A DNA stretch of 30,234 nt, taken from the IMG/VR virus record IMGVR_UViG_3300023181_000003, positions 64,001 through 94,234 of that record; one strand, 5' to 3'. The notes beneath the pieces were generated by a model. That model was not told where the DNA came from, made no database searches, and saw only the letters and a list, made by a program, of their open reading frames with translations. Source of the stretch: a virus. Positions 14,750 through 17,752 of this stretch are shown here, one piece after another (within the stretch, counting starts at the first letter, position 1; each line of letters starts with the position of its first letter). Position numbers and translations under genes: made by a program.

Positions 14750-14775
14750 AAGCCCCTAACGGGGCTTTCCTTTTG
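14750..14775 (+). terminator. Terminator ending the plus-strand block
   Basis: AAGCCCC/GGGGCTT perfect 7-bp stem (14750-14767), loop TAAC, then TCCTTTT. The A run on the other side is short, so it acts mainly on plus-strand transcription. Confidence 0.85.
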
Positions 14776-14840
14776 CCCACATGTAATCGGCACAGTCGAA
14801 ACTAATAGCGTGATGCAATGCATCACATAGAATACTAATT

Positions 14841-14862
14841 GCCTGCTCATTGCAGGCTTTTT
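14841..14862 (+). terminator. Second terminator after the plus-strand block
   Basis: GCCTGC/GCAGGC stem, loop TCATT, five T. The stem sequence is the same as that of the terminator in module 7 (9838-9855). Confidence 0.8.
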
Positions 14863-15360
14863 CATTTCTAGAGAGGTATTAATAAATTAATTAAAATAAA
14901 TGTAATTAATATTCAAATAGAGTGAGAAACGAGGCCGTAAGACGGCCATAGAGGCACGTAAACGAGTGCGAAGCACCTACCCTACTACCCTGAGCGAAAA
15001 TCGCTCTAAACGGCTCTAATCATGGCTCTATGCCATGTTGCGTAAACGATACGTTATATGTAATATTACCTTTTACGATACGTTGTAAAACAACGACATT
15101 AGTAGTCCCGACCGTTAGGTCGAATTAGTTACACACTCATGCTGTGCATGTAAGGCTTTCCTACGTGATGCAATGAGCATCACAATATAGGGTATATGCT
15201 AATGAATGAAGGCCATGGGGAGGGTACAGAGCGTATGCTTGGCATACAGGGAGTGATGGCGTCATGCTATGCATGACAATAGTAATAGTGTGATGGATAG
15301 ATTATTTGAAGATATATGATTTTTAATCAATGTGTTAAGCGAACTCCTTTCTTCCCTCAA

Positions 15361-15480
15361 ATTTTCTTAAAATGAAAAGAAAAATGATTGTCAATCAAAA
15401 TAATGTAACTAATTGTAGTTGAATAAAAGAATTGAATAATCTTCAATTGAATTAGGTTTGGTATTCAATTACATGAATTG
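15361..15480. other. AT-rich core with TTGAAT repeats
   Basis: TTGAAT occurs at 15419, 15432 and 15447, about 13-15 bp apart, and inverted (ATTCAA) at 15463. A 13-bp palindrome TGATTGTCAATCA is at 15385-15397. This low-GC, hairpin-poor core between two hairpin-rich flanks could be a DNA-unwinding or origin element. There is no gene here. Confidence 0.4.
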
Positions 15481-15791
15481 ATGAGAGGATAGCCTTATAG
15501 GGGTGAAGGATAGGCACATGCTCTGCATGTAGGTACAGCGTCCTGTGCATGCGTCAGCATGAGTAAGAGGTACGTCACACAATGCACCTTATGTTAAATG
15601 GGGGTTGATTTACTCCCACATCATGAAAATTACAAGCCATTCACACTCCATGATGCATAGCATCAGTCATTACTCCCCTCACCAATCAATATTTAATCTG
15701 ATTCAATCTAATTGGCAGAGCCCATCACCCTATTCTGTCTTTTATTTTATACCTCAGATATTTTGAAATCCTAATAGGGTGGCCGGGTGTA

Positions 15792-15822
15792 CTTTTAGGG
15801 CTTGCTAAGCACCAGTGCTAAA
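15792..15822. repeat. Larger branched inverted repeat
   Basis: Outer arms TTTTAG and CTAAAA enclose two small hairpins, GCTT/AAGC and AGCAC/GTGCT, which compete for the same bases. It looks like a small branched RNA or DNA structure within the hairpin array. Confidence 0.45.
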
Positions 15823-16168
15823 AATCTTAAATTTACATTCCTATATACCTTTCACACACTATTACTAATGTCATGCTATGCATGACGCTCTATACCACGT
15901 CAACGTAAACGTTGCTTCCTCTACACACTCCACAAATTATCTCTCATATTGCTTATATACATTAACGCAGCTTGCGTTAAATGGGACAGTCCTACGTGTG
16001 CTTGCACACAGATATTTCCCCTTCAGATTTATTACATTATTTATTAATTTATTCTTTAAAATTCCAGGGGTTTTAAAATCTCAATTTACAATTGAATTAA
16101 TTACATAGCTATTGCGTAGCAATAATGTTTTAGTCCCGATGTTATGATATTTTAGAAATGTACTGACG

Positions 16169-16191
16169 TAAAAATACCCGCATATAGCGGG
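16169..16191 (-). terminator. Terminator ending the minus-strand block
   Basis: Read on the minus strand, CCCGC, loop TATAT, GCGGG is followed by TATTTTTA. It lies about 7 bp beyond the stop of the last minus-strand gene at 16198. Confidence 0.75.
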
Positions 16192-16404: not shown

Positions 16405-16607
16405 TATATCCCTACCTCAGCTTTGAAGCCTACAATTGTAACATTGTTACGCCTATCCCCTACCTTCTGATAAGCATGGGGCTCTTTTAAATCATTCACT
16501 AATTCTAATCCATCCAATAAAGGATATTTCATTAGATAGCCTGCTCTCCAGCCTCCATCTAATTCTTTCTTAGTGGTAGGTCTTAGCAGGATATAATATT
16601 CACTCAT
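16404..16607 (-). CDS. Hypothetical protein, 67 aa
   Basis: Overlaps the toprim gene stop (ATGA) and the next gene (TAATG). Soluble protein (MSEYYILLRPTTKKELDGGW). No motif recognised. Probably translated only with its neighbours. Confidence 0.75.
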   Translation of the reverse strand: MSEYYILLRPTTKKELDGGWRAGYLMKYPLLDGLELVNDLKEPHAYQKVGDRRNNVTIVGFKAEVGI

Positions 16608-17122
16608 AAAAATATCTCCTTAAATTGTTCATCACTAATACTACCAACATCCTCACCTTCTGGCAAGAAGATGTTATACCCATGTGAGGAATATTGCATT
16701 AGTTGTTTTGAAGCAACGTCTCCTTGCACACAAGGGATAATATTAAATCCAATAAGCTTTAACCATTCTCTCAAGTGTTGTGGATTAGACGTAAGAACAC
16801 CAATAGCCTGTAAGCCATTATAATGGAGCCTACAGGCATCGAATATACCTTCACATAGGTATAGAGGCTTACGTCTGTCAATGAGGCTCTCAAGCCCGAA
16901 TACAGCCAATTGTCCTTTAGAGATGTGTGTAAAATATCTTCCCTCTTTTGGATGGTTATGTCTTAGCTTATCAGCTAATGGCCTGTAATGTTGATAGCCC
17001 ACTAATTGCCCTGACATATTCCATAGAGGGAATGTAATAATATTTTCATCATTGTCTATCCATGCTCTGCCAGATTTATCTGGAGAGAAATGTCTAGAGG
17101 TCAGATGTTGTTCTAGATTCAT
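16604..17122 (-). CDS. Toprim-domain primase-like protein
   Basis: The N-terminal part has ITFPLWNMSGQLVGYQHYRP, then GRYFTHISKG and AVFGLESL. The toprim core is LYLCEGIFDACRLHYNGLQA (catalytic Glu) and VLTSNP. This matches phage toprim primase-like proteins that handle primer synthesis or nicking with Mg2+. The second toprim motif, normally DxD, reads QGD here (PCVQGDVASKQ), so one acidic residue is missing. At 172 residues there is no zinc or helicase domain. No clear ribosome site precedes the ATG, which lies 12 nt after the homing endonuclease gene. Confidence 0.75.
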   Translation of the reverse strand: MNLEQHLTSRHFSPDKSGRAWIDNDENIITFPLWNMSGQLVGYQHYRPLADKLRHNHPKEGRYFTHISKGQLAVFGLESLIDRRKPLYLCEGIFDACRLHYNGLQAIGVLTSNPQHLREWLKLIGFNIIPCVQGDVASKQLMQYSSHGYNIFLPEGEDVGSISDEQFKEIFL

Positions 17123-17134
17123 ATTTAAGTGTTG

Positions 17135-17752
17135 TCATAAGGTTTCCGTGATTCTTTTATAATAGATATCATCTTGTAGTAGTTGCAAACGAAATTCTAA
17201 ACCAAGAGCTACCCTTTTGTCAAATGATTTTTCTAGTTTATATCTATCCATAACAGATTGAATTATTTTTCTTTTGTTTATTTGCCAAGCTAGGTGAGCA
17301 TCTTCTTTAGTTGAGAAGTAACCTAGATATCTTTTCTCTCCACCACTCCCTTGTGCTATATATGGTTTAGTTAAATTAAAACCATTATTGCAATATGCTA
17401 CCCCTAAAGGGTAGTCACCCTTTAAATTGCTACGGGTTACACAAGATATATTCACATACCTAGGAATGAAAGAGCAGAATTCCTCAGAGTAAAACTTATT
17501 CCCCATCTTTATAACGTCTTTATCTAAATCTAGATTTAGATATTCTTGTTGCCTACACCAAGACTCAAAATTAGAAAATAATATCCAATCTTTAGAAATT
17601 TCGCACCCTATATAAGACTTATTCTTTTCTTGACATTTCTTATTATAACATCTTTTTAGTATTCCCGTCCATACGGAATAAATTGAAGATTTCTTTGTCT
17701 CAATATCCGTATCATTTATCCCAACACCCTCAACTAATTTCTTACCGCCCAT
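17135..17752 (-). CDS. Putative homing endonuclease with AP2 domain
   Basis: The N-terminal half has YSVWTGILKRCYNKKC, SYIGCEISKDW and FSNFESWC, a pattern of phage homing endonuclease-like proteins. The C-terminal half has GVAYCNNGF, then KRYLGYFSTKEDAHLAWQ, an AP2-type DNA-binding domain. Such genes are free-standing mobile elements. It sits between 17756-17998 and the toprim gene with 3-nt and 12-nt gaps and has ribosome site AAGGAATAATAA. The catalytic residues are not certain. Confidence 0.75.
   Translation of the reverse strand: MGGKKLVEGVGINDTDIETKKSSIYSVWTGILKRCYNKKCQEKNKSYIGCEISKDWILFSNFESWCRQQEYLNLDLDKDVIKMGNKFYSEEFCSFIPRYVNISCVTRSNLKGDYPLGVAYCNNGFNLTKPYIAQGSGGEKRYLGYFSTKEDAHLAWQINKRKIIQSVMDRYKLEKSFDKRVALGLEFRLQLLQDDIYYKRITETL

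What the first reader, a model, noticed from the sequence alone, without database searches (positions are those of the whole stretch)
14810..16124. A 1.3-kb gene-free array of different short hairpins with three-base loops
Between two converging gene blocks there are at least fifteen perfect stems of 6-8 bp with loops of 2-5 nt, plus several 5-bp ones. With random bases I would expect about one such stem per 1.4 kb. Stem sequences differ, so it is not one repeat copied, yet loop size (mostly 3 nt) and spacing are alike. Conservation of structure over sequence suggests a folded RNA, a protein-binding array, or a replication or packaging region.
Basis: partly seen in the sequence, partly recalled or inferred. 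Interest (0 to 1): 0.88.

Follow-up and report, generated by a model that had tools for sequence, protein, structure and literature searches.

The report
Hairpin array at phage genome ends
A 1.3-kb gene-free stretch of a Pseudomonas-phage-like virus is packed with about twenty tiny DNA hairpins; related phages keep the same kind of array, with different letters, around their mapped genome ends, so it is probably the end, packaging and replication region of the viral chromosome, built from self-pairing DNA.

Summary
In detail: 20 perfect stems (6 bp or more, loop 2-5) lie in 14810-16124, against 1.8 expected (maximum 8 in 1000 dinucleotide shuffles). It is the densest hairpin cluster of the 94-kb virus.

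The stretch lies between terminators of two converging gene blocks. No Rfam family matches and promoters are not above chance. The nearest relatives (DNA polymerase 67-69% identical) have an array in the same gap, with unalignable sequence.

In phages with mapped ends the array surrounds and fills the direct terminal repeat (DTR): PaP1's 1190-bp DTR holds 15 stems (1.1 expected), and the nankokuvirus 771-bp DTR holds 6 (0.9 expected). In PAK_P3 the array follows the DTR, not the convergent gap 10 kb away.

Across ten Pakpunavirus copies stems vary 3.5-fold less than loops, with compensatory changes, loop-length changes and loop inversions. Pooled arrays favour 3-nt loops (14-fold), C-G closing pairs (49 to 12) and cGNAg triloops (11-fold).

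Best reading: the genome-end region of this virus, whose DNA folds into mini-hairpins when single-stranded. That this virus's end lies here is inferred, and the biochemical role is inferred. Two unrelated DTRs (LIT1, phiKMV) lack arrays. I found no earlier report in the papers I could search.

The parts
14771..16172 (.). gene-free hairpin-array region between the terminators of two converging gene blocks; proposed genome-end (DTR/packaging/replication) region
   Evidence: 20 stems against 1.9 expected; no genes, no Rfam match, promoters not above chance
14750..14767 (+). intrinsic terminator of the rightward gene block (left edge)
   Evidence: AAGCCCCTAACGGGGCTT + TCCTTTT
14810..14826 (.). hairpin gtgatgc[AAT]gcatcac
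14841..14857 (+). hairpin gcctgc[TCATT]gcaggc followed by TTTTT; also a second terminator
14878..14891 (.). hairpin attaat[AA]attaat
14933..14947 (.). hairpin ggccgt[AAG]acggcc
14992..15006 (.). hairpin gagcga[AAA]tcgctc
15021..15037 (.). hairpin catggc[TCTAT]gccatg
15081..15095 (.). hairpin cgttgt[AAA]acaacg
15165..15183 (.). hairpin gtgatgc[AATGA]gcatcac (same stem as 14810, longer loop)
15233..15247 (.). hairpin gtatgc[TTG]gcatac
15261..15277 (.). hairpin gtcatgc[TAT]gcatgac, first copy; part of a 34-nt inverted repeat with 15855-15888
15430..15448 (.). hairpin aattgaa[TAATC]ttcaatt
15465..15481 (.). hairpin tcaatt[ACATG]aattga
15516..15530 (.). hairpin acatgc[TCT]gcatgt
15651..15665 (.). 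hairpin tgatgc[ATA]gcatca
15870..15886 (.). hairpin gtcatgc[TAT]gcatgac, second copy
15901..15914 (.). hairpin caacgt[AA]acgttg
15962..15980 (.). hairpin ttaacgca[GCT]tgcgttaa
15996..16009 (.). hairpin gtgtgc[TT]gcacac
16081..16095 (.). hairpin tcaatt[TAC]aattga
16110..16124 (.). hairpin tattgc[GTA]gcaata, a c(GNA)g DNA triloop
   Evidence: motif enrichment
16177..16191 (-). intrinsic terminator of the leftward gene block (right edge)
   Evidence: CCCGCTATATGCGGG + TATTTTT
16604..17122 (-). TOPRIM primase-like gene next to the array
   Evidence: phrog_849, E 3.9e-38
17135..17752 (-). HNH endonuclease about 1 kb from the array; homologues abut or lie inside the arrays of SYP, L036 and PaP1
   Evidence: phrog_953; tblastn

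Best explanation
The array is the genome-end region of this phage: the part of the concatemer that holds the direct terminal repeat, where packaging cuts and where the ends are replicated. It is built as a string of short DNA mini-hairpins (6-8 bp stem, 2-5 nt loop). When the end DNA is single-stranded (3' overhang after incomplete lagging-strand synthesis, or the strand displaced while the DTR is duplicated), the hairpins fold. They then shield or compact the strand, or give priming or docking sites for end replication and terminase. Shown: the array, its location, the same architecture in close relatives, its overlap with mapped DTRs in two related genera, conservation and covariation of stems in one genus, and loop and closing-pair preferences typical of stable DNA hairpins. 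Inferred: that this phage's own end lies here, that single-stranded DNA is the folded form, and what the hairpins do.
For: Enrichment and genome-wide maximum. Nearest relatives G007 and G008 keep an array in the convergent gap with unalignable sequence; M1 has 6 stems there. PaP1's mapped 1190-bp DTR (PMC3652863) holds 15 stems against 1.1. The nankokuvirus 771-bp DTR (PMC4482731) holds 6 against 0.9, and the next 771 bp hold none. In PAK_P3 the array follows the DTR, not the convergent gap 10 kb away. SYP opens in its array with 351-bp identical ends. Felixounavirus E9, called DTR by PhageTerm (PMC11737134), begins in the equivalent gap, at the same base as several other records. In ten Pakpunaviruses, stem variability outside the HNH gene is 0.030, loops 0.109, rest 0.105, with both-side changes, loop-length changes and four different perfect stems at one site inside a coding gene. 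Loop inversions with unchanged stems. Spacer 3 enriched 14-fold; C-G closing 49 to 12, p=2e-6; cGNAg 8/51 against 7/507, p=1e-5.
Against: No read data for this virus, so its terminus and redundancy are not shown. In PaP1 and PAK_P3 the array extends several hundred bp upstream of the DTR, so the two are not co-extensive. The Felix O1 gap is weak in hairpins (6 against 2.9). DTRs of unrelated LIT1 and phiKMV have none, so hairpins are not a general need of DTRs. PAK_P4 has an RNA-seq antisense transcript across its DTR, so an RNA role is not excluded. Predicted folding of 200-nt windows is only moderately better than shuffled. The apex and loop statistics were chosen after looking at the data.
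Confidence: 0.6

Rival explanations
1. The arrays are a by-product: polymerase template switching in a stalled or single-stranded genome-end region repeatedly creates and perfects short inverted repeats and flips loops, with no function.
For: Loop inversions with intact stems, both-side stem changes, stems reused with different loops, and rapid turnover of whole arrays between relatives are what template switching would leave.
Against: Stems outside the HNH gene are about 3.5-fold less variable than loops and spacers. Hairpin numbers stay at 17-21 in all ten Pakpunaviruses. The bias to C-G closing pairs and cGNAg triloops points to selection for stability, although stable hairpins might also promote switching.
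Confidence: 0.2
2. A structured non-coding RNA is transcribed across the array and folds into many short stem-loops, for example to bind or titrate a host factor.
For: Stems and covariation fit RNA as well as DNA. In PAK_P4 an RNA-seq antisense transcript (67500-68700) covers the DTR.
Against: No Rfam match; promoter-like sites not above chance and terminators at both edges; no GNRA or UNCG enrichment while the DNA triloop cGNAg is enriched; G-T and A-C outer mismatches show no one-strand RNA signal; modest RNA folding z-scores.
Confidence: 0.1
3. An array of double-stranded dyad sites for DNA-binding proteins (host regulators or a phage packaging protein), perhaps a decoy or partition array.
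For: Perfect parS-like sites (TGTTCCACGTGGAACA) in the arrays of SYP, L036 and L115. Perfect palindromes with spacer 0-1 are also enriched 2.6- to 3.3-fold.
Against: No parS-like site in this window's array. Spacer length varies for one stem (GTGATGC with 3 or 5 nt; GAAAGC with 4 or 3), stem sequences differ, and the spacer optimum of 3 fits hairpin loops better than operator geometry.
Confidence: 0.07

Closest known systems
Direct terminal repeat region of Pakpunavirus (PaP1, 1190 bp) and Nankokuvirus (Ab03/PAK_P3, 771 bp)
   Same: Hairpin array of the same size class (6-8 bp stems, 2-5 nt loops), related phage group, densest hairpin cluster; PaP1's DTR is also at the junction of converging gene blocks
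   Different: Sequence unalignable with this window; terminal redundancy of this virus not shown; PAK_P3's DTR is 10 kb from its convergent gap
Convergent gene-free gap of Felix O1-like phages (Ounavirinae)
   Same: Same position between converging blocks, 1.62 kb, holds a PhageTerm-called end in E9
   Different: Few hairpins; instead GTTARG/GTTAGA direct repeats spaced near multiples of the helical turn
N4 virion RNA polymerase promoter hairpins
   Same: 5-7 bp stems with 3-nt loops near genome ends (own knowledge; N4 ends also show stems)
   Different: No giant virion RNA polymerase here: the largest ORF of the 94-kb record is 699 aa, the DNA polymerase
d(GCGNAGC)-type DNA mini-hairpins and complementary-strand initiation hairpins of single-stranded phages (own knowledge)
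   Same: C-G closing pair, GNA triloops, single-stranded DNA form
   Different: Here an array of up to 20 in a double-stranded DNA tailed phage; use as initiators not shown

Membership tests
Direct terminal repeat / genome-end region of Vandenendeviridae-like phages | physical genome ends with a repeated sequence at both ends | not testable with these tools
   No reads; the contig has no end repeats. Mapped only in relatives
Direct terminal repeat / genome-end region of Vandenendeviridae-like phages | host virus related to phages with such DTRs | tested here: met
   DNA polymerase 68.5% identical to M1; capsid 47% SYP, 34% PAK_P3, 34% PaP1
Direct terminal repeat / genome-end region of Vandenendeviridae-like phages | hairpin array in the candidate region, as in the mapped DTRs | tested here: met
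   20 against 1.9 expected; PaP1 DTR 15 against 1.1; Ab03 DTR 6 against 0.9
N4-type vRNAP promoters | giant virion RNA polymerase gene | tested here: not met
   largest ORF 699 aa
Known structured RNA family | Rfam covariance match | tested here: not met
   only tRNAs in the window
REP/MITE-type repeat copied in an array | copies of one sequence | tested here: not met
   only short partial families, at most 4 copies of 17 nt
parS partition array | TGTTYCACGTGRAACA sites | tested here: not met
   none with up to 2 mismatches in the window; present in arrays of SYP, L036, L115

The most novel reading that the evidence does not exclude
A previously undescribed class of chromosome end: in this phage group the genome termini are strings of single-stranded-DNA-folding mini-hairpins kept by selection for pairing, not sequence, even through a coding gene. 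They act as structural elements in copying, protecting or packaging linear viral ends.
Probability: 0.4. Interest if true: 0.85.

Novelty: new variant of a known kind. Interest (0 to 1): 0.72.

Why it matters
Terminal repeats of large phages are usually treated as plain repeated sequence. If their ends are hairpin strings under selection for base pairing, this gives a direct handle on how such phages copy and cut their ends, a way to find genome ends in metagenomic contigs by hairpin density, and a test set in widely used laboratory and therapy phages (PaP1- and PAK_P3-like).

Tried and rejected
Direct nucleotide relatives: none for the array or for 24 kb of the window in the phage collection. 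A relative of the last gene before the array: none found. Rfam: only tRNAs. N4-type promoters: no giant RNA polymerase. parS partition array: no good site in this window. Transcript 3' ends of the flanking blocks: terminators lie at both edges. General property of DTRs: rejected by LIT1 and phiKMV, whose DTRs have no stems. Property of convergent gaps: rejected by PAK_P3, whose array is at the DTR and not at the convergent gap. RNA folding of 200-nt windows gave only moderate z-scores, so local hairpins rather than a global fold. The phiPsa374 record with a PhageTerm DTR was not held. Literature searches for hairpins in such DTRs returned no report; only open-licence papers are held.

Full report
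Check of the observation. In 14810-16124 there are 20 perfect stems of at least 6 bp with loops of 2-5 nt; 1000 dinucleotide-preserving shuffles give 1.8 +/- 1.3, maximum 8. Twelve loops are 3 nt. Across the whole 94,234-bp virus record this is the densest hairpin cluster, 15 per kb against 9 for the next and a median of 2. Spacing is irregular, and about nine stems share an ATGC..GCAT core, so 'all different, evenly spaced' is too strong.

Anatomy. The array lies between two converging gene blocks. An intrinsic terminator closes each block at the edge: 14750-14767 on +, 16191-16177 on -; the 14841 hairpin is a second terminator. So the array is not simply the 3' end of the flanking transcripts. 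Promoter-like sites are not above chance, Rfam finds nothing but tRNAs in the window, and GC skew changes sign in the middle, where the genome's cumulative skew peaks. A primase-like gene and an HNH endonuclease gene follow on the right.

Which phage. The DNA polymerase is 68.5% identical to Pseudomonas phage vB_PsaM_M1, while the capsid protein is closest to vB_PpS_SYP (47%), then PAK_P3 and PaP1 (34% each). It is a mosaic relative of the Ounavirinae and Vandenendeviridae groups.

Relatives keep the architecture, not the sequence. The two nearest IMG/VR relatives (DNA polymerase 67-69%) have, in the convergent gap, arrays with 13 (G007, L192 4930-6047) and 8 (G008, L193 6369-7496) stems in the best kilobase; M1 has 6 in its gap against 0.9 expected. 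SYP, phiPto-bp6g and IMG/VR contigs L036, L115 and L167 also have arrays. This window's array aligns with none of the others.

Arrays sit at mapped genome ends. PaP1's DTR was determined by restriction digestion and run-off sequencing as 1190 bp (PMC3652863), which is taken here as 90526-91715 of its record. It holds 15 stems against 1.1 expected, and its record opens at the junction of converging blocks. The 771-bp nankokuvirus DTR (PMC4482731; Ab03 1-771 and 85476-86246) holds 6 against 0.9, and the next 771 bp hold none. In PAK_P3 the DTR lies about 10 kb from the convergent gap, and the array is at the DTR: hairpins follow the genome end, not the convergence. In both genera the array extends some hundreds of bp upstream of the DTR start. 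SYP is deposited with 351-bp identical ends inside its array, though this could be an assembly overlap. In Felixounaviruses several independent records begin or end at the same base of the equivalent gap, and the E9 genome was called DTR by PhageTerm, although that gap has few hairpins.

Selection on pairing. In ten Pakpunavirus end regions (the nine others 79-94% identical to PaP1) each has 17-21 stems. Outside the HNH gene, stem columns vary 0.030, loops 0.109 and the rest 0.105. CTTAGC..GCTAAG becomes ATTGGC..GCCAAT in phage EM; one stem keeps its letters while its loop changes from GACA to GGA; at 91290, inside the HNH coding gene, four different perfect hairpins occur in different phages. 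In nankokuviruses GCCTC..GAGGC becomes GCTTC..GAAGC, and several loops are reverse-complemented while the stem is unchanged (GTA/TAC, AC/GT, GTC/GAC twice). Two of these four, the GTC/GAC cases, need only a single base change. Loop inversion points to hairpins or template switching at the DNA level. These covariation tests were made in related genera; close enough relatives of this window's own array were not found.

Physical signature. Pooled over 11 arrays, spacer 3 is enriched 14-fold, spacers 2, 4 and 5 by 6- to 8-fold, and spacers of 7 or more by 0.9- to 3.6-fold. The closing pair is C-G 49 times and G-C 12 times (p=2e-6; shuffles about equal), and cGNAg triloops make 8 of 51 three-base loops against 7 of 507 in shuffles (p=1e-5). 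These features make DNA mini-hairpins very stable (own knowledge); GNRA and UNCG RNA tetraloops are not enriched. These statistics were explored after the fact, and some arrays are related to each other.

Mechanism proposed. During replication the linear ends, or the DTR being duplicated at packaging, pass through single-stranded DNA. The mini-hairpins fold there and protect, compact, or give start or docking sites for end replication and terminase. No step of this was tested. HNH homologues abut the SYP and L036 arrays, lie inside the PaP1 DTR, and lie 1 kb from the array here, which may be functional or mere homing. The main rival is that template switching in end DNA makes and perfects such repeats without function; low stem divergence and stable numbers speak against it, but not conclusively.

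Limits. The end of this virus was not mapped; podovirus DTRs (LIT1, phiKMV) show no array; and only open-licence papers could be searched.

Noticed in passing
L013 294-309 and 963-978, L036 14600-14615, L115 17039-17054 and 17541-17556: Perfect parS-like sites (TGTTYCACGTGRAACA, the binding site of chromosome-partition protein ParB) inside the end arrays of several phages; Fur-box-like palindromes (AATGATTCTCATT) also occur there. None in this window.
   Followed up: partly
L019 12306-13927 (Felix O1): The equivalent gap carries 19 GTTARG/GTTAGA repeats (2.9 expected) on one strand, often spaced 11, 20-22 or 31-33 bp, close to multiples of the DNA helical turn.
   Followed up: partly
L018 12400-13560 and relatives (nankokuvirus end region): Hairpin loops are reverse-complemented between close relatives while the stems are unchanged.
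   Followed up: partly
window 17135-17752: HNH endonuclease with homologues directly next to or inside the arrays of SYP, L036 and PaP1.
   Followed up: partly
L189 2048-3248 (PAK_P4 67500-68700): An RNA-seq-based antisense RNA annotation covers the Pakpunavirus terminal repeat.
   Followed up: no
L194 1-2000 (phage N4): N4's first 2 kb is also rich in hairpins (3 in the first 400 bp, 8 in the next 1600), at least partly its known promoter hairpins.
   Followed up: no
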